From: Gordonia sp. UBA5067
GTDB lineage: Bacteria > Actinomycetota > Actinomycetes > Mycobacteriales > Mycobacteriaceae
Direction: 5' to 3'
Length of the DNA: 10,569 bases
NCBI RefSeq assembly: GCF_002414845.1
Contig: NZ_DIAX01000034.1
Location: 59,797-70,365 of the forward strand
Shown: positions 2,854-10,542 of the stretch, one piece after another
Position numbering within the stretch: the stretch's first letter is position 1
How the letters are laid out: the number at the start of each line of letters is the position of its first letter
Translations under genes and position numbers: made by a program
Notes under the pieces: model-generated
What the model was told of the DNA's origin: nothing
The model's input: only the letters and a program-made list of their open reading frames with translations
Database searches by the model: none

Positions 2854-5451
2854 ATGCCAACCGAATGGCCGATAGTTGAGCGCGCAAGCGAATTTCAGGT
2901 GATTCGTGATGCGCTACAGGTCAATTCGGACATCGGTGGTGTCATTCTCACCGGCGAGTCGGGTGTCGGCAAGACGACGCTGGCCCGCCTGGTGACTGCC
3001 GAACTCGGTGGGGCGCGCTGGGTGGCCGGCACCGAGTCGGCGAGGTCGATTCCGCTCGGCGTCTTCGCACACCTCGTCGGACCCTCGGCGACGAGCGACC
3101 CGGTCGGCTACCTCTCCGCGGCCCGCCACTCGTTGCTGGCCGAGGGGAAGACCATCATCGGCGTCGACGACGCACACCTGCTCGACGAGCTGTCGGCGAC
3201 GCTGCTGCATCAGTTGGCGATCGACCGTTCCGTGCACATCGTCGCCACGGTGCGCAGCGGCGAAGCCGTGCCCGATGCGGTGACGTCCTTGTGGAAGGAC
3301 CGCCACCTCCGGCGCCTGACGCTCAGCCCGTTCAGCAAGCAGCAGAGCGTGGAACTCGTCGAGTCGGTCCTCGGTGGCAGACTCGAAGGGCTGTCGGCCG
3401 ACCTGATGTGGGACGCCTCCGGTGGGAATGCGCTGTTTCTGCGGCATCTTGTCGACGGTGCCGTCGAGGCGGGTACCCTGCGCGAGCGAAACGGGGTGTG
3501 GCAGTTGCGCGGACGAACCGCCATCACCTCGGAGCTGGCGTCCCTGCTGGAGGGCCGGATCGATCGCCTCGACGCCGAGGTGCTGACGGTTCTGCAGTAT
3601 CTGAGTCTGTGTGAGCCGGCCTCGCTGGACGTGCTGACGGAGCTCGTCGGGGACACGGCGGTGGAGCGGGCCGAAGCCCTCGAGCTGGTCCGGATCGTGC
3701 GGGAGGGCGGCGCCCTTCGCGTGCAGTACACACACCCGCTTTTCGGTGAGGTGATCCGCCGCCGATTGGGATCATTGACCGCGCGGCGGCTGCGCGGCAA
3801 GTTGGTCTCGGTCCTGCAGGCGCAGGGATCCCGCACCGCGGCCGATCGCATTCTGATCGCCGACTTGGGGCTCGACAGCGACGTGGCGATTGCCGGCGAT
3901 GATCTGGCCGCCGCGGCAAATGAAGCCTTGACCTTGGCGAATATTCCGATGGCGCAGCGCTTTGCGCAGGCCGCCGTCGACGCCGGGGGTGGTTTGGCCG
4001 CGGTCGAGCCGCTGGCCCGGGCGCTGATGTGGCAGGGGCGTGCCGACGAGGCGGAGACGGCGCTGGCCGGCTTCAACGCCGATGACTTCGATCAGGTCGA
4101 ACTCGTCCGCTGGGGTTTGCTGCGCATCGGCAACCTGTTCTGGGCGGTCGGCGACGCCACCCGGGCGACCGGGGTCCTCGAACTTGTCGCCGGGCGGGTC
4201 ACCGAGCCGGCCTTGGCGCTGATCGTCAAGGGGGTCACATCGGCCATCGCCTTGTTCACCAACCGCCTTGACGAGGCGATCGCGCTGTCCGACGAGGTGC
4301 TCGCCAACCCGTTGGCGACCCCGTGGGCGGTCGAGTGGGCGGTATTCGGGGGCAGCTTGTCGCGGGCGTTGATCGGGCGGGGCGATGAGGTCGCCCCGCT
4401 CGCCGAACAGGCTCGCGAGGCCGAGCGGGTGACCGACGGGCTGTTGCGCTTCCCGGCGGGGTTCGGCGAGATTCTGGCCCTGACGCTGCCTGGGCATCTC
4501 GATGACGCGGAGAAGGCCGCGCAGCGCTACCTCGACTTCTCGTCGGCCGGGCACTATCTGGGGTGGGCCCTGTCCGGTATCCAGGCCGCCGAGGTGGCCG
4601 TCATGCGCGGCGATCTGCCCGGCGCCACCGCCCGATTGGAGCAGACCCTGGCGGCGCTGGGCGAGGAGGGCACCGCCGCCTCGTGGAGCTACCCGGCCTT
4701 TATTCTGCAGGCGATGGCCTTGTCCGGGCTCGGTCAGGGTGGGGCTGCCGAGTCGGCCATTGCGCGGGCGCGCAGCGCCTACAACGACCACGTGGCGGTA
4801 TTCGGCCCGAGTCTCGATGTGGCAGTCGCCTGGCAGGCCGCCGGTGCCGGGATGTTCAACCGGGCGGCCGAACTTGCGGTGACCGCCGCGCACAACGCCG
4901 CAGCGAGCAGCCAGTTCACGATCGAGGGGGAGGCCTGGCACTTGGCGGCGAGGTTCGGCCTCGCCGTCGGGGCGGCACGGCTGGCCGAATTGGCCGAGCA
5001 ACTCGACGGCCCGCTGATCGAGGTGTACGCCCGGCACGCGCGGGCGGTGGCCGACGGCGATCCGCACGCCCTCGATATGGTGGCCGATGAGTTTGCCGGG
5101 CTGGGCTTCCTACTCGCTGCCGCAGACTCCTCGGCCCAGGCCAGCGTCCTTTACGCCGAGCAGGGCTCCCGTTCGGCGTCGGTCGCGGCCGCGTCGCTGG
5201 CTAATCGACTGGCCGTCGAGTGCGGTGGCGCACGCACCCCGGCGCTGGTGCTGGCCGCACAGCCCTTGCCGTTGACGGCGCGGGAACGGGAGATCGCGAA
5301 CCTCGTCGCCGCCGGGCTGAGCAACAAGGAGATCGCCGACCGGCTGTTCGTCTCGGTCCGAACCGTCGAGGGACACGTCTACCGCGCCTGCGCCAAGCTC
5401 GACGTCGCCGATCGTGCCGAGATCGCCGCCCTCATCCGCGGCGGGCACTAG
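2854..5451 (+). CDS. LAL-type LuxR family transcriptional regulator with N-terminal ATPase
   Basis: Large cytoplasmic, STAND-like transcription factor of 865 residues, the usual LAL size. It has an N-terminal P-loop ATPase with Walker A GESGVGKT (34-41) and Walker B IIGVDDAH (Asp105-Asp106). A long, Ala/Leu-rich helical middle (~330-790), probably TPR-like, follows. The C-terminal LuxR/GerE helix-turn-helix (805-865) contains [20 protein letters not shown] and a recognition helix around [13 protein letters not shown]2854 was chosen because a TACTAT -10 box lies six bases upstream. The open frame extends 45 codons further, but that stretch is out of frame over the 3' end of the lipoprotein gene. 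LAL proteins usually activate nearby catabolic, transport or secondary-metabolism genes on binding an inducer. The upstream peptide importer and the convergent hydrolase are possible targets, but the sequence does not say which. Confidence 0.92.
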
Positions 5452-5461
5452 GGCTCGTCGT

Positions 5462-6712
5462 TCAGTCCCGGCGGGCAAGCCGGTCGTCGAGCCAGTCGAA
5501 TATGCGCTGATCGGTGCGGGTGCGCGCCAGCGGCTGACAATGCCCGTTCGCGCCCTCGTCGGCGGTGAAGTGGACGAGGGTCGCGATACCGTCGGCGCAG
5601 CGCGCCGCGAGTTCGGTGGATTGGCCCGGCCAGAACTGCTCGTCGTCGGGGTCGGTGATCAGCAGCGGCGTGGTGATGGCGCTGGCGATCGCCGGGTCGA
5701 TCACGTAGTCGCCGACGGCGGTCAGCGTGTCGAAGTAGCCGGCGTGTGGCTGCGACTGAAGGTAGGGCCGGGCCCGCCAGTCCCACATCCGGCGGGTCTT
5801 GGGGGACACCGTCAAACCGATCGCGAGATCGCGGTCGAACTCGTCGGCCCGGCCGGTCGCGAGCTGGTTCGTCAAGTGTTTCGGCATGTGGGTGAGCCAC
5901 GACGCGCGAACATCGACGACACCAGGATCAGCGATCGCAGCGGCGTAGCGGTGCTCGTAGGCCAGCGTGCGGGGCACCCAGTAGCCCGCCTGGCTGATGC
6001 CATAGAGCGCAAGGCGATCGGGATCGACACCGGGCAGCGTGCAGACATGGTCGGTGACCGGGGTCTGCACGGCCTCCCAATCGGGCCGGAACCCGGTGCC
6101 GCGCTCGAACAGCATCGATTGCTGGCCGGGCCCGTCGAAGAGCACGACGCCGTAGCCACGAGCCAGCGCGGCGAAGGCCGCGGCCGACCAGAGGGCCGAC
6201 ACCGAACCATCACTTCCGTTGATGGTGACGAGCGTCGCCCCGGTGCCGCCGCCGGCCGGGGTCAGATACCAGCCGGGCAGTGTGGTGTCCTCGTACGGGA
6301 TCGCCAACCGCTGTACGGAAAAGTCGCCATGATCGAGAAATGCCTCCCACGCCGCCCGGTGTTCGGCGAAGACGGGCATCCGCTTGGCATCGTCGGTGAG
6401 GCCGTCGAGCCCATCGAACGCCTGCGACAGATAGTTGGCCGCACGCAGGTAGGACGATGCGGCGCTGACCCGATGGCCGGCGCTGCTCGAGGCGTCGCCA
6501 TCGGCGACCAGGCGTCGGCCCACAGCGAGCCACGCGTTCGACCACTCGAGGTCATGGCCCTCCCGGCAACGGGCGATGGTTGCCAGCACTTCGCCGGTGT
6601 CGGCACCGCCGGAGGAGCAGTAGCCCAAGAGTAGGCGGACCGCGAAGTCGCGCCCGGCATCGGTGTAGAAGCCATCGGCGAACACTGTGTGGTTGGCATG
6701 AGGTCGATGCAT
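5462..6712 (-). CDS. Alpha/beta hydrolase, 2,6-dihydroxypseudooxynicotine hydrolase/FrsA-like type
   Basis: Serine hydrolase of 416 residues with an N-terminal helical cap (~1-130). The cap carries the pattern SAGHRVSAASSYLRAANYLS, known from the dihydroxypseudooxynicotine C-C hydrolase group. The catalytic domain shows an oxyanion-type strand INGSDGS (164-170), FDGPGQ (192-197), and nucleophile elbow GISQAG with Ser240. An acidic residue in TDPDDEQFWPGQ (Asp356 or Asp357) and His391 in NGHC complete the triad. Members of this group cleave carbon-carbon bonds or esters, so the reaction here is open. No signal peptide is seen, so it is probably cytoplasmic. ATG6712 was chosen for its GGAAGG site. 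The open frame reaches 44 codons upstream, but that part would overlap the end of the preceding gene and looks non-coding. It lies 55 bases after the SRPBCC-DUF5995 gene on the same strand and is likely the last gene of the module. Confidence 0.85.
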   Translation of the reverse strand: MHRPHANHTVFADGFYTDAGRDFAVRLLLGYCSSGGADTGEVLATIARCREGHDLEWSNAWLAVGRRLVADGDASSSAGHRVSAASSYLRAANYLSQAFDGLDGLTDDAKRMPVFAEHRAAWEAFLDHGDFSVQRLAIPYEDTTLPGWYLTPAGGGTGATLVTINGSDGSVSALWSAAAFAALARGYGVVLFDGPGQQSMLFERGTGFRPDWEAVQTPVTDHVCTLPGVDPDRLALYGISQAGYWVPRTLAYEHRYAAAIADPGVVDVRASWLTHMPKHLTNQLATGRADEFDRDLAIGLTVSPKTRRMWDWRARPYLQSQPHAGYFDTLTAVGDYVIDPAIASAITTPLLITDPDDEQFWPGQSTELAARCADGIATLVHFTADEGANGHCQPLARTRTDQRIFDWLDDRLARRD

Positions 6713-6716
6713 GGGC

Positions 6717-6722
6717 CCTTCC
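6717..6722 (-). promoter_or_regulatory. Ribosome binding site (GGAAGG) of the hydrolase gene
   Basis: Read on the minus strand, GGAAGG stands four bases before the ATG at 6712. The spacing is short but usable. It fixes the start over the longer open frame. Confidence 0.5.
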
Positions 6723-6737
6723 GAAGGTGGAGCCCCA

Positions 6738-6743
6738 ATCCTA
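6738..6743 (-). promoter_or_regulatory. Candidate internal -10 box TAGGAT before the hydrolase
   Basis: The 55-base gap between the fusion gene and the hydrolase contains TAGGAT on the minus strand. This fits TANNNT and would give a leader of roughly 20 bases carrying the GGAAGG site. No good -35 box is visible. The hydrolase may be read both from this site and by read-through from upstream. Confidence 0.3.
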
Positions 6744-6767
6744 ATAGTCCGGGACCCGGCGACGCGG

Positions 6768-7967
6768 CTATGTGAGCGCGCTCGGCGTTCCCCGGGTTGT
6801 CGCCACCGCCGCGGCGAAGGTGGCAACCCGGTGGCGGCCCACATCGTAGCCGGCGCGGCCCAGCAGTGCGTCGCGGAATTGTGGGTCGATGCGCGCGGCC
6901 AGCGACGTCCACCACGGTTTGTGGCTGCGCGGCAAATCGGCGAGGAGCCGGTCGGATGCGGCGGTGAAAACCGGCGCCAACCGCAGGTAGTCGGGCCGGA
7001 ACTCGCGCAGGTCGCGATCGGGATAATGCGCGGTGTGCACGTCGACGAGGGCGCGGGGCAGATCGGCGTCGATATGCGCGGACACCCCGTAGACCAGACC
7101 CTTCATCACGGGTAGGTGGGGGCGCTTGGGGTCCGGTGAATCAGCGGTCGACCACGCCTTCGACCAAGCCGGTTCCACTTCGCCGCCCGCGCAATAGGCC
7201 GCGAGGTTGCGCTCGTAATACTTGTGAAAGACGGGGATGAGGGCCAGTACCCAGTCGGGGTGGTCCAGGGCCCGGGTGGGTGCGGCGGGTGGGATGCCGC
7301 CGGAATGGGCAGTGCCGCTGGCCGCGCTGATCATCTCCTCGGTCACGTACTGGTAGACGCGCGCGAACCACTGTTTGGGGTCGTCGTCCGCGGCGAGTTC
7401 GTCGGCGAGGGTGCGTTGGGCCCGCAGTGAGTCCTGTGCGTCGGCGAGCAGCCGATCGAATTCACCGGAGCCGGGGACAACCTGGTTTGGGGCGGGCCTC
7501 GGCGTCGGCTCTGGGTCGTCGGCGGCCGCAAGGCGGGCAACCTCCGCGAGGCTGTCCAGCGACGCGCCGACCTGCCGGCGGATCACCCGGCACAGCGCAT
7601 GCGATAGCGGCGCGGCGATCAGCCGCATCGATACCTGCCACGAGAGGACGGTGCGTCCGTCGTTGGTGGGCGAGAATCGCTGTACGCCTTGATGACTCAG
7701 GAGTAGCGGGCCGCCGTCGTACACGCGGTAACGGAACTCGCGCGGCCAGTCGGCGTGTTCGACGACTTCGCGTAGGCGGTGCTTGCCGTCAGGCAGGGTG
7801 ATGGTTCGCAGGGCGCCGGCGCTGTCGGGTCGTTCACCGGGGCCAGGGTCGGCAAGATCGACGCGGGCGGTCGACCACCGGCGCATCTGCTCGGGGTCGG
7901 TGACCAGGTGCCACGCGGTGCCCGGCGTGCAGTCGAGGACTCGTGTCAGCGTGAACTGGGCGGTCAT
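6768..7967 (-). CDS. SRPBCC domain-DUF5995 fusion protein
   Basis: A 399-residue protein of two parts. Residues ~1-145 look like an SRPBCC (START/polyketide-cyclase-like) ligand-binding fold. It opens FTLTRVLDCTPGTAWHLVTD, then EQMRRWS, EFRYRVYDGGPLLL and TVLSWQVSMRL, and ends in a long helix. A Pro-rich linker (~150-168) follows. Residues ~169-399 resemble DUF5995: 'FARVYQYVTEEM', 'PVFHKYYERNLAAY', a Trp-rich 'AWSKAW', and the family hallmark GVSAHIDADLPRAL (294-307, His298, Asp300, Asp302). DUF5995 has no established function that I know of; the His/Asp cluster could hold a metal, which is inference. The start ATG overlaps the stop of the upstream oxygenase gene as ATGA, so the two are translationally coupled and probably made in similar amounts. 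SRPBCC folds bind hydrophobic ligands, suggesting this protein handles the substrate or product of the oxygenase. Confidence 0.8.
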   Translation of the reverse strand: MTAQFTLTRVLDCTPGTAWHLVTDPEQMRRWSTARVDLADPGPGERPDSAGALRTITLPDGKHRLREVVEHADWPREFRYRVYDGGPLLLSHQGVQRFSPTNDGRTVLSWQVSMRLIAAPLSHALCRVIRRQVGASLDSLAEVARLAAADDPEPTPRPAPNQVVPGSGEFDRLLADAQDSLRAQRTLADELAADDDPKQWFARVYQYVTEEMISAASGTAHSGGIPPAAPTRALDHPDWVLALIPVFHKYYERNLAAYCAGGEVEPAWSKAWSTADSPDPKRPHLPVMKGLVYGVSAHIDADLPRALVDVHTAHYPDRDLREFRPDYLRLAPVFTAASDRLLADLPRSHKPWWTSLAARIDPQFRDALLGRAGYDVGRHRVATFAAAVATTRGTPSALT

Positions 7968-9205
7968 GCGACGGGGTCCATCCTGTTCTCGTCGGCGGCG
8001 CGGTAGCGGGCGCCGACGATCTTGGGGTCGCCCAGGTCGATCCCCAGCCGCCAGGTGACCAGCCGCAGTTCGCGCTGGGCGATGGTGCGCTCAGAACCGA
8101 GTAGGCCGAGGGCGCGGACCAGTTCGCGGGAGCGCACGACCGGCCGGGCGAGGTCGACGACGTGGTGCAGCGGTGTTTGGCGCAGTCCCATCGCCGCGGC
8201 GATGTCGGCGTCGACCCACCGCGTGGACACCGCCGCGAAGAGTGGTCGCAGAAGTGGCCGCACCAGGGCGTGCACGGCGTCGTTGAGCGGTCCGGGCAGG
8301 CCCAGGTCGGCGCGGTAGCCGTCGTCGAGCAGGGCGCGGACGAGTGTCTTGGCGTCGTCGTGGGGGCGCAGCTGGAACTCCTGCGAGATCCGCCAGATAC
8401 GCATGGCGTCGTCGTAACTGGTGGGCAACAGGCGGTCTTCGACCCCCATGACCCAGCCGACCCATCGCCACAGGTGGGTGATGGCTTCGAGGTCGGCCCG
8501 CGAGTAGTGAATGCCGAAGTCTCGGGCGATCCGCAGTGGCAGTGCCAGGAATCCGGCGGTGATGGTCAGTTGGGAATAGGTCTGATTGATCGGGACGCCC
8601 CAGGCGTTGTCGTCCCAGCCATCGCTGGCGTGCAGGTGGTGGCGGACCATCGCGTGGACGAGGCGGATGCGCAGTGTCTCCACCCAGCCGCCGGCACCGA
8701 CATCCATCAACCCGGGCGCGGTGGCCAGCGTGACCCACCGGGCGGTGGCCTGGACGCGGTCCCAGGTTCCCTCGGTGAGTCGGCCGGTCGCGGCGAGGGG
8801 CCGGGTGAATCCGCGTGCCTGATAGCCGTAGATCAACGATTGGTACAGGGTGCTCGACTGGAGCGATCCGAAGCGCCACCAGGCGTCCGCGCCGGCCCGG
8901 GCCAGTGCCGGATCGAACCAGGGTGGCGGGGTGCCCGCGTGCTCGAGGAAGGCGCGGAAGGCCGGCGCCTCCTGGGATAGCGTTGCCGTGGTGAGTGCTG
9001 GATCATCCAGCGCCGAGACGATCTCGTTCCACTTGAGTCCGCCACCGGAAAAGAGTTCGGTGATCACCGCATCGGCCAGCGGATCACCCGCGAGCAGCCC
9101 CTGTGCCATCGCTTCGACGTGCGCGGGATAGCGAGCTGCGACGTCATCCCAGTTCTGTGCCCCGGTGATGGTGGCAGCGGTCGTGGCAGACACACTTCCG
9201 ATCAT
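7964..9205 (-). CDS. DUF2236 / MpaB-family putative haem oxygenase
   Basis: A 413-residue protein of the oxygenase MpaB/latex-clearing-protein superfamily. The hallmark is 'RIRLVHAMVRHH' (180-190) with His184, the position of the proximal haem ligand in Lcp. Upstream, Arg150 and Thr154 in WDRVQAT match the Arg/Thr pair near the haem of Lcp, but Ala153 stands where Lcp has its distal lysine. Downstream are WGVPINQTYSQLTITAGF and HLWRWVGWVMGVED, typical of the family. No signal peptide or Tat motif is present, unlike secreted Lcp, so an intracellular small-molecule substrate is more likely than rubber. Known members cleave C=C bonds (Lcp) or act in mycophenolate biosynthesis (MpaB). The start ATG9205 follows a -35/-10 pair with six bases between -10 and ATG and no ribosome site, so the mRNA is probably leaderless. 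It is the first gene behind the operator and is coupled by ATGA to the SRPBCC-DUF5995 gene. Confidence 0.85.
   Translation of the reverse strand: MIGSVSATTAATITGAQNWDDVAARYPAHVEAMAQGLLAGDPLADAVITELFSGGGLKWNEIVSALDDPALTTATLSQEAPAFRAFLEHAGTPPPWFDPALARAGADAWWRFGSLQSSTLYQSLIYGYQARGFTRPLAATGRLTEGTWDRVQATARWVTLATAPGLMDVGAGGWVETLRIRLVHAMVRHHLHASDGWDDNAWGVPINQTYSQLTITAGFLALPLRIARDFGIHYSRADLEAITHLWRWVGWVMGVEDRLLPTSYDDAMRIWRISQEFQLRPHDDAKTLVRALLDDGYRADLGLPGPLNDAVHALVRPLLRPLFAAVSTRWVDADIAAAMGLRQTPLHHVVDLARPVVRSRELVRALGLLGSERTIAQRELRLVTWRLGIDLGDPKIVGARYRAADENRMDPVA
9188..9196. repeat. Extra operator half-site AGACACACT inside the oxygenase 5' end
   Basis: AGACACACT is the perfect reverse complement of AGTGTGTCT at 9212-9220, giving a second, wider inverted repeat (15-base gap) centred on the start codon. 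Its AGACA core is 20 bases from the AGACA of the main palindrome, two helical turns. It could bind a second repressor dimer or extend the footprint over the transcription start. Confidence 0.45.
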
Positions 9206-9222
9206 AAAGACAGTGTGTCTTT
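9206..9222. promoter_or_regulatory. Probable TetR operator: 17-bp palindrome AAAGACA-GTG-TGTCTTT
   Basis: The two seven-base arms are perfectly complementary around a three-base centre, the size and form usual for TetR-family sites. It lies directly before the oxygenase ATG and covers the -10 box, so a bound repressor would block RNA polymerase. The tetR gene ends 31 bases further upstream on the same strand, making its product the obvious candidate binder. Confidence 0.75.
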
Positions 9223-9240
9223 TGTACTGGGAGGCGTCAA
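9212..9240 (-). promoter_or_regulatory. Promoter of the oxygenase-fusion(-hydrolase) operon
   Basis: On the minus strand TTGACG (9240-9235) is a near-consensus -35 box, followed after 17 bases by CACACT (9217-9212). CACACT keeps the key A (second) and T (sixth) positions of a -10 box. Six more bases (GTCTTT) lead to the ATG at 9205, so transcript and reading frame would start together. The -10 box lies inside the 17-bp palindrome. Confidence 0.6.
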
Positions 9241-9253
9241 GGAAGCGCCGCGC

Positions 9254-9871
9254 CTAGCGGGGCGTGTCGATTCCGGAGAAGCCCGACCACACCAAGAGGA
9301 ACAGGTGGTCGACGACCTGTTCCCGGCTGATGGTCCGAGTCGCCGACCACCACGTGATGGTCGACGACATCGCGCCGACGAGGGCATGCGCCCACGTCGG
9401 CGCCGGGGCGGTGTCGCGGCCCCGCGCGGCGAAGCCCTCGGAAAGAATCCCGGTGATGGCCGCAACGACCGCGGTGTCCGAAAGCGGCGCGGTCGGCAGG
9501 AGATGGCCAGAGAGCGCCTGGGCCAGTTGCGGCTCGTCCTCGAACCACCCGGCCAGGATGTCGATGGCGGCGCGCGTCTGCTCAGCGGGGTCGGCGATGC
9601 CCCCGGCGATACGGGCGAGTCGCCCGATAATGAGTCGGGTATGCCGGTTGGCGAGCGAATCGAGCAGGGCCGTCCGATCGGTGAACGATGCGTAGACCGC
9701 CGAGCGGGTCAGGCCGGCAGCGGCGGCCACCTCGGCGAGCCCGACGTCGGGCCCCGACTCGCGGATCGCCACTTCGGCGGCGTCGAGGAGTTGCTCCCGC
9801 CGCTGTGTCGGGTCCACCGGCGGTCCGGGAGGGCGGCCGCGCCGTCGACGTGCGCGTGTTTGCTCGACCAT
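9254..9871 (-). CDS. TetR family transcriptional repressor
   Basis: A 205-residue DNA-binding protein. The N-terminal TetR helix-turn-helix runs from about residue 21 to 76: RREQLLDAAEVAI, then EVAAAAGLTRSAVYASFTDR, then a Leu-rich helix LLDSLANRH. The C-terminal part is an all-helical ligand and dimer domain ending in TWAHALVGAMSSTITWW, where the ligand is usually sensed. The first 18 residues are strongly basic and contain RGRPPGPP, an AT-hook-like GRP core. It is followed on the same strand, after a 48-base gap, by the oxygenase gene, whose promoter carries a perfect palindrome. It is therefore the likely local repressor of that operon. The ATG at 9871 follows a TACGCT -10 box by nine bases, implying little or no leader. 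It is divergent from tag, but a regulatory link to DNA repair is not suggested. Confidence 0.9.
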   Translation of the reverse strand: MVEQTRARRRRGRPPGPPVDPTQRREQLLDAAEVAIRESGPDVGLAEVAAAAGLTRSAVYASFTDRTALLDSLANRHTRLIIGRLARIAGGIADPAEQTRAAIDILAGWFEDEPQLAQALSGHLLPTAPLSDTAVVAAITGILSEGFAARGRDTAPAPTWAHALVGAMSSTITWWSATRTISREQVVDHLFLLVWSGFSGIDTPR

Positions 9872-9880
9872 CGTCGTCCC

Positions 9881-9886
9881 AGCGTA
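9881..9886 (-). promoter_or_regulatory. -10 box TACGCT of the tetR gene
   Basis: TACGCT on the minus strand fits TANNNT and ends nine bases before the tetR ATG. Just upstream of it lies TGTGTC (9888-9893 on the + strand), which resembles one arm of the operator at 9206-9222, hinting at weak autoregulation. No clear -35 box at normal spacing. Confidence 0.45.
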
Positions 9887-9917
9887 CTGTGTCGCACCCG
9901 GTTCATCGGCGGCAAAC

Positions 9918-9923
9918 TAGACT
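9918..9923 (+). promoter_or_regulatory. -10 box TAGACT of the tag gene (leaderless)
   Basis: TAGACT fits TANNNT and is followed by seven bases (GGCGGCC) and the GTG at 9931. There is no ribosome site between them, so the transcript probably begins at the start codon. A -35 box is not evident. Confidence 0.55.
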
Positions 9924-9930
9924 GGCGGCC

Positions 9931-10542
9931 GTGGAACCCTATCTCGCTCCAGACGGCGATTTGCGGTGTGCATGGGCCGGCGGTGCGCCCGAGTTCTTGG
10001 CGTACCACGACACCGAATGGGGCTTTCCGGTCAGCGACGACATCAGGCTGTTCGAGAAGATCTGTCTGGAGGGATTCCAGTCCGGGTTGAGTTGGCGCAC
10101 CATCCTCAACAAGCGGGAGAACTTCCGAAAAGCGTTTGCCGGCTTCGACTTCCATCGTGTCGCGCAATTCGATGACGCGGATGTGACCAGGTTGCTGGGC
10201 GATCCGGGCATCGTTCGGCACCGCGGCAAGATCGAGGCGGCAGTCAACAATGCGCGTCGGGCCGTCGAGATGGAGGCGGGCGAGGGATCGGTGGCCGCCT
10301 ATCTGTGGCGGTTCGAACCCGGCCCCGGCGAGGTTGGTGTGCCCCAGACCAAGAGCACATCGGCGACCTCGGTGGCCCTGTCGAAGGACCTGAAGAAGCG
10401 CGGCTGGCGCTTTGTCGGGCCGACCACCGCGTACGCGTTCATCCAGGCGATGGGCCTGATCAACGATCATCAGCACGAATGTAAGACACGCGCCGAGGTC
10501 GACGCCGCCCGTCGGATGTTCGTTCCACCTGCAAGTATCTGA
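9931..10542 (+). CDS. tag: DNA-3-methyladenine glycosylase I
   Basis: Base-excision repair enzyme that removes 3-methyladenine from alkylated DNA. The 203-residue protein aligns along its length with E. coli Tag from memory. It has CAW near the start, YHDTEWG, ICLEGFQSGLSW, NKRENFRKAFAGFD, IVRHRGKIEAAVNNA, TSATSVALSKDLKKRGWRFV and GLINDH. The zinc ligands are present as Cys13, His26, His180 and Cys184. The catalytic-site Glu47 and stacking Trp55 correspond to E. coli Glu38 and Trp46. GTG9931 was chosen because it gives the family's usual N-terminus and lies seven bases after a TAGACT -10 box; the open frame upstream overlaps tetR on the other strand. It stands alone as a single gene, divergent from tetR. 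The stop is 27 bases from the window end. Confidence 0.96.
   Translation: MEPYLAPDGDLRCAWAGGAPEFLAYHDTEWGFPVSDDIRLFEKICLEGFQSGLSWRTILNKRENFRKAFAGFDFHRVAQFDDADVTRLLGDPGIVRHRGKIEAAVNNARRAVEMEAGEGSVAAYLWRFEPGPGEVGVPQTKSTSATSVALSKDLKKRGWRFVGPTTAYAFIQAMGLINDHQHECKTRAEVDAARRMFVPPASI

What the first reader, a model, noticed from the sequence alone, without database searches (positions are those of the whole stretch)
5462..9871. TetR-controlled module: DUF2236 oxygenase + SRPBCC-DUF5995 fusion + dihydroxypseudooxynicotine-hydrolase-like enzyme
Four same-strand genes, with a 4-base coupling between the first two enzymes and a perfect operator before them, look like one regulated pathway. It combines a putative haem oxygenase, a hydrophobic-ligand fold joined to a domain of unknown function, and a hydrolase from a group that can cleave C-C bonds. 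I know of no described pathway with this combination. A plausible logic is oxidative attack on a hydrophobic compound, hand-over by the SRPBCC part, and hydrolysis of the product. The substrate is not predictable from sequence.
Basis: partly seen in the sequence, partly recalled or inferred. Interest (0 to 1): 0.7.

Follow-up and report, generated by a model that had tools for sequence, protein, structure and literature searches.

The report
Repressor-controlled double-bond-cleaving oxygenase cassette
A Gordonia bacterium carries a small gene cassette in which a repressor is predicted to control a haem enzyme that cuts carbon-carbon double bonds and an uncharacterised lipid-pocket protein; some mycobacteria pair a related repressor and the same DNA switch with a carotenoid-cutting enzyme, which hints at what the Gordonia enzyme does.

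Summary
The four genes are as described, but the conserved unit is TetR, MpaB/Lcp-family oxygenase and SRPBCC-DUF5995 fusion, without the hydrolase. MpaB adjoins the fusion in 20 of 21 Gordonia genomes that have the fusion. Among the loci fetched, the hydrolase lies near the fusion only in the window and four close relatives, 1-6.6 kb away there; 12 other hydrolase loci hold no module gene. The conserved one is a 17-bp palindrome, AAAGACANNNTGTCTTT, just before the MpaB start: 17 of 18 places in 59 Gordonia genomes, reversed control 0. The same palindrome precedes fusion-MMPL in 3 sister-genus loci and, in 15 of 15 mycobacterial loci whose TetR is 37-45% identical to this one, a carotenoid-oxygenase gene. 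A published TetR/AcrR regulator, CcoR, represses such an oxygenase 100-fold in M. kansasii (PMC9861118). Best reading: a TetR-repressed cytosolic C=C-cleaving haem oxygenase standing where mycobacteria use a carotenoid oxygenase, with the fusion binding a hydrophobic substrate or product. Activity and substrate are inferred. New variant of a known kind.

The parts
9254..9871 (-). TetR-family regulator (PF00440 + PF19344 TetR_C_32), predicted repressor of the cassette
   Evidence: Pfam; FasR, KstR and other NCBIfam models all far below cut-off; relatives of 44% identity or more at 23 places in 201 family genomes, 22 of them beside MpaB, the fusion or a carotenoid-oxygenase gene
9206..9222 (.). 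Conserved operator palindrome AAAGACANNNTGTCTTT, directly before the MpaB ATG (9203-9205)
9235..9240 (-). Conserved TTGACG, -35-like element, 17 bases before CACACT (9212-9217) inside the palindrome; predicted transcript starts at or next to the ATG (leaderless; inferred)
   Evidence: TTGAC stands before the palindrome in 23 of the 26 loci that have it; the tool's stricter sigma-70 scan lists no promoter here
9188..9220 (.).
7964..9205 (-). MpaB/Lcp-family (PF09995) predicted b-haem oxygenase, no signal peptide seen by eye; R150, T154, H184 align with Lcp R164, T168, H198; Lcp K167 and E148 not conserved
6768..7967 (-). SRPBCC (residues about 1-150) + DUF5995 (about 165-390) fusion protein
5462..6712 (-). 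Alpha/beta hydrolase of the SMU_737 / Ayg1 / AntI / DHPON-hydrolase group; neighbour, judged not part of the cassette

Best explanation
A conserved cassette. A TetR repressor sits on a palindrome that overlaps the -10 region and start of the next gene and is released by a hydrophobic (isoprenoid- or polyene-like) ligand. This turns on a cytosolic MpaB/Lcp-family b-haem oxygenase that cleaves a C=C bond, translationally coupled to an SRPBCC-DUF5995 protein that holds the hydrophobic substrate or aldehyde/ketone product. In sister lineages an MMPL transporter gene follows. The oxygenase most likely does for Gordonia what a carotenoid-cleavage oxygenase behind a related TetR and the same operator does in mycobacteria. 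Shown by computation: gene content, co-occurrence, operator conservation, the swap of oxygenase type, conserved haem-site residues. Inferred: haem binding, C=C cleavage, substrate class, ligand and repressor role of TetR, role of the fusion, leaderless start. The hydrolase is a neighbour, not a step.
For: Co-occurrence: fusion in 21 of 59 Gordonia genomes, MpaB directly adjacent in 20 of 21 (the exception is cut by its contig end 35 bases from the fusion); of 39 MpaB relatives (E <= 1e-90) in 37 genomes, 20 adjoin the fusion, 17 adjoin an MMPL gene, 2 neither but have TetR. Gene order TetR-MpaB-fusion-MMPL-TetR2 in 4 loci of genus g10, one of them with broken MpaB and fusion frames. Of 357 ORFs from 27 chosen loci, MpaB, fusion and TetR recur most widely (20, 19, 16 loci; next family 7). 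Operator: 18 places with at most 1 mismatch in 17 of 59 Gordonia genomes, 17 of them within 41 bases of the MpaB match, reversed control 0 of 59. In 201 family genomes all 8 exact matches are at TetR loci of this kind. At most 3 mismatches: 17 of 23 loci of close TetR relatives (shuffled 2 of 23), 0 of 7 and 0 of 8 loci of remoter TetRs. Swap: 3 g18 loci have TetR-palindrome-fusion-MMPL without MpaB; 15 of 15 mycobacterial loci with a TetR 61% or more identical to the G099 one have TetR-palindrome-carotenoid oxygenase; the G099 oxygenase is PF03055, 374 bits, best solved match apocarotenoid-15,15'-oxygenase. R150, T154, H184 invariant in 17 of 17 aligned MpaBs. Literature: MpaB-family Nro1 shows b-haem-like bands and forms aldehydes/ketones from nitrile rubber (PMC12724181, passages); CcoR represses cco1 about 100-fold and its loss abolishes pigment in M. 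kansasii (PMC9861118, section 2.4).
Against: No activity, ligand or binding data for this protein. Similarity to Lcp is low (55 bits), and the distal haem Lys and catalytic Glu of Lcp are absent. Whether M. kansasii CcoR is homologous to this TetR was not tested; there the genes are divergent, here co-directional. A shared operator need not mean a shared substrate. The palindrome (<= 1 mismatch) stands before 16 of the 22 MpaBs of the window type but only 1 of the 17 MMPL-linked ones, so the MMPL-linked copies are mostly not under this operator. Five of 23 close TetR relatives lack a good palindrome: four g10 genomes without the fusion, and one whose neighbours include neither MpaB, fusion nor MMPL. 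Eleven further one-mismatch places lie in nine family genomes without the module and were not examined; the reversed control there gave 16 places in 14 genomes. The fusion also occurs in myxobacterial/deltaproteobacterial loci without TetR or MpaB (0 of 10, several on short contigs). In the window genome the MMPL gene lies elsewhere.
Confidence: 0.5

Rival explanations
1. Envelope-lipid or hydrophobic-compound handling: MpaB modifies an unsaturated lipid, the START-like fusion carries it and MMPL exports it; the carotenoid-oxygenase link is only a borrowed repressor.
For: MMPL next to MpaB in 17 of 39 Gordonia copies and next to the fusion or MpaB in 8 g10 loci and 4 of 8 g18 loci; fusion beside DUF2804 in 3 mycobacterial loci and a fatty-acid desaturase in Minicystis rosea
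Against: The window genome keeps MMPL at a separate place, with TetR2 and a BAX/YccA-like gene; one TetR/operator type beside two unrelated oxygenase families whose known members cleave C=C bonds is hard to explain by chance
Confidence: 0.3
2. Polymer (rubber-like) degradation: a relative of Lcp or Nro1 that attacks polyisoprene or nitrile rubber, with TetR acting like LcpR.
For: Same Pfam family as Lcp; TetR regulators beside lcp genes bind lcp promoters (PMC7413915, passages); Nro1 from Gordonia is called MpaB-family (PMC12724181)
Against: No signal peptide visible; no Lys at the Lcp K167 column and no acidic residue at the E148 column in 17 aligned; the LcpR-bound palindromes printed in PMC7413915 differ from AAAGACANNNTGTCTTT; coupled to an SRPBCC-DUF5995 gene
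Confidence: 0.08
3. One reading: oxygenase, carrier and hydrolase act in sequence in one operon.
For: Same strand, 55-base gap between fusion and hydrolase in this genome, no terminator-like site between them, so read-through is possible here
Against: 0 of 19 other neighbourhoods have the hydrolase; in the four relatives that do, 1-6.6 kb separate it from the fusion; 0 of 12 hydrolase loci elsewhere have any module gene; in the family sample 5 of 6 Gordonia genomes with the fusion have no hydrolase match at E <= 1e-40
Confidence: 0.06

Closest known systems
CcoR-Cco1 carotenoid cleavage locus of M. kansasii / Rv0653c-Rv0654 of M. tuberculosis (PMC9861118)
   Same: TetR/AcrR regulator next to an oxygenase of isoprenoid C=C bonds; predicted logic of repression
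   Different: Here the enzyme is an unrelated MpaB/Lcp-family protein, genes are co-directional and an SRPBCC-DUF5995 gene is coupled; homology of the two TetRs not tested
Lcp rubber oxygenase and LcpR regulators
   Same: Same Pfam family (PF09995), conserved R/T/H haem-site residues, TetR neighbour
   Different: 55 bits similarity only, no signal peptide seen by eye, distal Lys and catalytic Glu absent, different palindrome, different partners
Bacterial MpaB-family C=C-cleaving haem oxygenases (Nro1 of Gordonia J1A; Purwani 2024, cited there, not read) and fungal MpaB
   Same: Family, predicted b-haem, predicted alkene cleavage
   Different: Window protein is a divergent member (70.8 bits to PF09995; four paralogues in the same genome score 135-242); T154 is Thr where PMC12724181 gives Arg72 for Nro1
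SRPBCC and DUF5995 proteins (irumamycin Orf3, PMC11672594, passages)
   Same: DUF5995 domain
   Different: Fused to SRPBCC in one chain; no function for DUF5995 is given in the one paper found

Membership tests
MpaB/Lcp family (PF09995) | Profile match above curated cut-off | tested here: met
   70.8 bits, cut-off 23
MpaB/Lcp family (PF09995) | Haem-site residues R164, T168, H198 (LcpK30 numbering) | tested here: met
   R150, T154, H184; invariant in 17 of 17; residue roles from PMC6311187 passages
MpaB/Lcp family (PF09995) | Bound b-type haem and O2-dependent C=C cleavage | not testable with these tools
   needs purified protein
Lcp rubber oxygenase | Distal Lys167 and catalytic Glu148 | tested here: not met
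   A153 and P136 at these places; in 17 aligned the K167 column holds A, S, E, G or R, the E148 column P (16) or S (1)
Lcp rubber oxygenase | Secretion signal | tested here: inconclusive
   N-terminus read by eye only; no predictor run; that Lcp acts outside the cell is from the abstract of PMC5522427 (listing)
TetR regulator with this operator | TetR_N domain and conserved palindrome at the neighbouring promoter | tested here: met
CcoR-type carotenoid-cleavage regulator | Homology to M. kansasii CcoR / Rv0653c | not tested
   their sequences were not compared
CcoR-type carotenoid-cleavage regulator | Adjoins a carotenoid-cleavage oxygenase gene | tested here: not met
   in the window it adjoins an MpaB-family gene; a 44%-identical relative in G099 does adjoin one
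Dihydroxypseudooxynicotine hydrolase group (the neighbour gene) | Sequence match over cap and nucleophile region | tested here: met
   profile E 2.2e-13 to 2jbw, 3.6e-32 to 3fnb; S240 and H391 invariant in 11 aligned; the usual acid position is not invariant
Dihydroxypseudooxynicotine hydrolase group (the neighbour gene) | C-C hydrolase activity and its specific Glu (recalled) | tested here: inconclusive
   the 2jbw alignments stop before that residue

The most novel reading that the evidence does not exclude
An unrecognised isoprenoid/apocarotenoid cleavage and hand-over system: a haem MpaB-family oxygenase that stands, behind a related TetR and the same operator, in the place of the non-haem carotenoid-cleavage oxygenase of mycobacteria, with the SRPBCC-DUF5995 fusion as a dedicated carrier or second-step enzyme and MMPL as exporter in relatives. 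It would give DUF5995 a role and show two unrelated double-bond-cutting chemistries exchanged within one regulon.
Probability: 0.3. Interest if true: 0.75.

Novelty: new variant of a known kind. Interest (0 to 1): 0.55.

Why it matters
It turns a divergent MpaB subfamily and DUF5995 into a testable prediction: a related repressor and the same 17-bp switch serve a haem oxygenase in Gordonia and an apocarotenoid-type oxygenase in mycobacteria. If right, the repressor's ligand and the oxygenase's substrate can be sought with a handful of known carotenoid-derived compounds, and a non-homologous exchange of alkene-cleaving enzymes within one regulon would be documented.

Tried and rejected
Hydrolase as part of the module: rejected on neighbourhoods. 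A CobW/ZigA-like GTPase gene present between fusion and hydrolase in three relatives has no close copy in the window genome (best 30% identity), so the 55-base gap may be a local deletion; not proven.

FasR/KstR identity of the TetR: 39 and 17 bits against cut-offs 330 and 280. TA_Rv0910_toxin model on the SRPBCC part: 19 bits against 100, rejected. PDB sequence hits of the fusion to telomere TPP1/CyaA (E 0.002-0.45): taken as chance.

Full-length fusion fold search only showed the SRPBCC part, so DUF5995 was folded alone: no confident PDB relative; this does not show a new fold.

Two mycobacterial TetRs 44% identical to the G099 TetR (L278, L279) have no carotenoid oxygenase next to them; one has a 3-mismatch palindrome far from the TetR gene, taken as chance.

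Sigma-70 scan listed no promoter in 5400-9960; the TTGACG-17-CACACT reading rests on conservation only. Paper hit PMC11002830 uses the name MpaB for a daptide protein. Paper search for carotenoid cleavage oxygenase + TetR + operator gave two papers, judged irrelevant from the listing.

The MMPL coordinates typed into the script were 22 places; for the other MpaB genes I compared the coordinates by eye and found no further adjacent pair.
Full report
What is there. The window lies in a Gordonia genome (G000, contig 46, 59797-70365; the nearest named proteins and loci are Gordonia, and several genomes of its genus match named Gordonia loci letter for letter over 200 bases). On the minus strand lie TetR (9254-9871), an MpaB/Lcp-family protein (7964-9205), an SRPBCC-DUF5995 fusion (6768-7967) and an alpha/beta hydrolase (5462-6712). 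MpaB and fusion overlap by 4 bases. Flanking genes on the plus strand are an ABC ATPase, a family-5 solute-binding protein, a LuxR/AAA regulator and a 3-methyladenine glycosylase.

Which genes belong together. Fusion relatives occur in 20 of 201 family genomes (E <= 1e-10) and in 21 of 59 Gordonia genomes (E <= 1e-20). In Gordonia 20 of the 21 have MpaB directly adjacent; the other lies 35 bases from a contig end (L224). MpaB relatives (E <= 1e-90) number 39 in 37 of 59 Gordonia genomes: 20 beside the fusion, 17 beside an MMPL-family transporter gene 48-482 bases away, 2 with TetR only (L157, L223). Two genomes (G203, G228) hold both forms. TetR usually precedes MpaB on the same strand; in L035, L176 and L224 it lies beyond the fusion on the other strand. 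In genus g10, four loci show TetR-MpaB-fusion-MMPL-TetR2-BAX/YccA-like in that order (one, L049, with broken frames) and four show the same without the fusion. Eight g18 loci have the fusion without MpaB, four with MMPL and three with TetR. The MMPL protein is MmpL3-like but far under that model's cut-off (390 and 402 of 1400 bits). Antrihabitans has TetR-MpaB-fusion (2 of 2, L064, L065). Clustering 357 ORFs from 27 chosen loci, MpaB, fusion and TetR recur in 20, 19 and 16 loci (the ORF picker missed some copies); the next families recur in 7, all one chromosomal background, and 6. I read the three genes as a cassette.

The hydrolase. In the 19 other neighbourhoods the hydrolase is absent. Among all loci fetched it is found on the same strand as the fusion in four close relatives: G209 (L168), G236 (L169), G. 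araii (L051/L171) and UBA7599 (L052), at about 1.3, 5.0, 6.6 and 1.0 kb. A CobW/ZigA-like GTPase gene intervenes in three of the four; in L052 no clear gene does. The LuxR gene of the window is the next gene on the far side of the hydrolase in L168 and L169, lies beyond an MspA-like gene in L052, and was not found in the stretch held as L171. Twelve hydrolase loci (12 of the 46 other genomes with a match) contain no TetR, MpaB or fusion. In the window the 55-base gap may allow read-through, but there is no comparative support for a shared function.

The operator. The 31 upstream regions show a compact palindrome AAAAGACANNNTGTCTTTT just before the MpaB ATG in most. In the window TTGACG (9235-9240) is 17 bases before CACACT (9212-9217), which puts a predicted transcript start at the ATG. 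Of 35 loci, 26 match a relaxed palindrome at the module, 23 of these with TTGAC before it; two more (L157, L054) match with one mismatch; L159-L161 have TetR but a degenerate site; L162-L164 and L166 have neither an adjacent TetR of this type nor the site. A scan of 59 Gordonia genomes for AAAGACANNNTGTCTTT (<= 1 mismatch) gave 18 places in 17 genomes; 17 lie within 41 bases of an MpaB match, one (G236) elsewhere; the reversed control gave none. Set against, 16 of the 22 MpaBs of the window type and 1 of the 17 MMPL-linked ones have it. In 201 family genomes there were 25 places in 23 genomes: 14 at TetR loci of this type, 11 in nine genomes without the module and not examined; all 8 exact matches are among the 14; reversed control 16 places in 14 genomes. 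At 23 loci of close TetR relatives (44% identity or more), 17 hold the site with <= 3 mismatches; the six without are G172 (its site is upstream of MpaB, outside that stretch), four g10 genomes lacking the fusion, and G119, whose neighbours include no MpaB, fusion or MMPL. Remoter TetRs: 0 of 7 and 0 of 8; shuffled loci of the first group: 2 of 23.

The swap. One exact site outside the known cassette, in G099 (Mycobacterium sp. TNTM28 by the protein record P0074), lies between a TetR 44% identical to the window one and a gene of family PF03055 (RPE65/carotenoid oxygenase, 374 bits; best solved match apocarotenoid-15,15'-oxygenase, 243 bits; lignostilbene dioxygenase 128). A search of 248 genomes of that genus found 25 TetR relatives at E <= 1e-30; the 15 with 61% identity or more to the G099 TetR all have this oxygenase gene next and the palindrome directly before it (11 exact, 4 with one mismatch); their identity to the window TetR is 37-45%. 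The other 10 (37-44% to the G099 TetR) have no such gene within the 1.5 kb held; one of them, M. koreensis (L278), has the fusion. In three g18 loci the palindrome stands before fusion-MMPL. Thus one TetR/operator type is found before MpaB, before fusion-MMPL and before a carotenoid oxygenase.

Mechanism. I propose repression by TetR, release by a hydrophobic isoprenoid-like ligand, C=C cleavage by MpaB and binding of substrate or product by the fusion. MpaB-family Nro1 shows bands that its authors read as b-haem and makes aldehydes/ketones (PMC12724181, abstract and passages). In M. kansasii CcoR, a TetR/AcrR protein, represses cco1; its loss raises cco1 100-fold and leaves the cells unpigmented, and the M. 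tuberculosis segments complement (PMC9861118, section 2.4 read in full). Rv0654 cleaves beta-apo-10'-carotenal (PMC5133782, passages). That these regulators are homologous to the window TetR was not tested. That Gordonia make carotenoids is recalled, from no call.

Novelty. In the library searched, DUF5995 appears in 1 paper, 'oxygenase MpaB family' in 2, MpaB with oxygenase and Mycobacterium in 1 and DUF2236 in 12 (listing). None of the passages I saw describes this cassette; most of these papers I did not open. The library holds open-licence papers only.

Noticed in passing
L036-L038, L049 versus L158-L161 (genus g10): The palindrome is exact in the four loci with the fusion and degenerate in the four without it, as if losing the fusion relaxed the operator.
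   Followed up: partly
L062 6902-7945, L063 9135-10169, L066 9091-10125: In three Mycolicibacillus/Mycobacterium loci the fusion adjoins a DUF2804 gene instead of TetR-MpaB (Pfam on L062; the others by 70-71% identity).
   Followed up: no
L072 6873-7940 (Minicystis rosea): A fatty-acid desaturase gene lies directly before the myxobacterial fusion relative.
   Followed up: no
L168 9023-10174, L051 7578-8738, L169 11196-12324: A CobW/ZigA-like GTPase lies before the hydrolase in relatives but no close copy was found in the window genome.
   Followed up: partly
L222 4014-7890 (G000:C56): The window genome keeps the MMPL, TetR2 and BAX/YccA-like genes together at another place without an MpaB gene.
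   Followed up: yes
L049 (G076): MpaB and fusion reading frames are broken in this genome; described only.
   Followed up: no
window 2854-5451: LuxR/AAA regulator resembling AbsR2 (239 bits, cut-off 850) between the transporter genes and the hydrolase.
   Followed up: no
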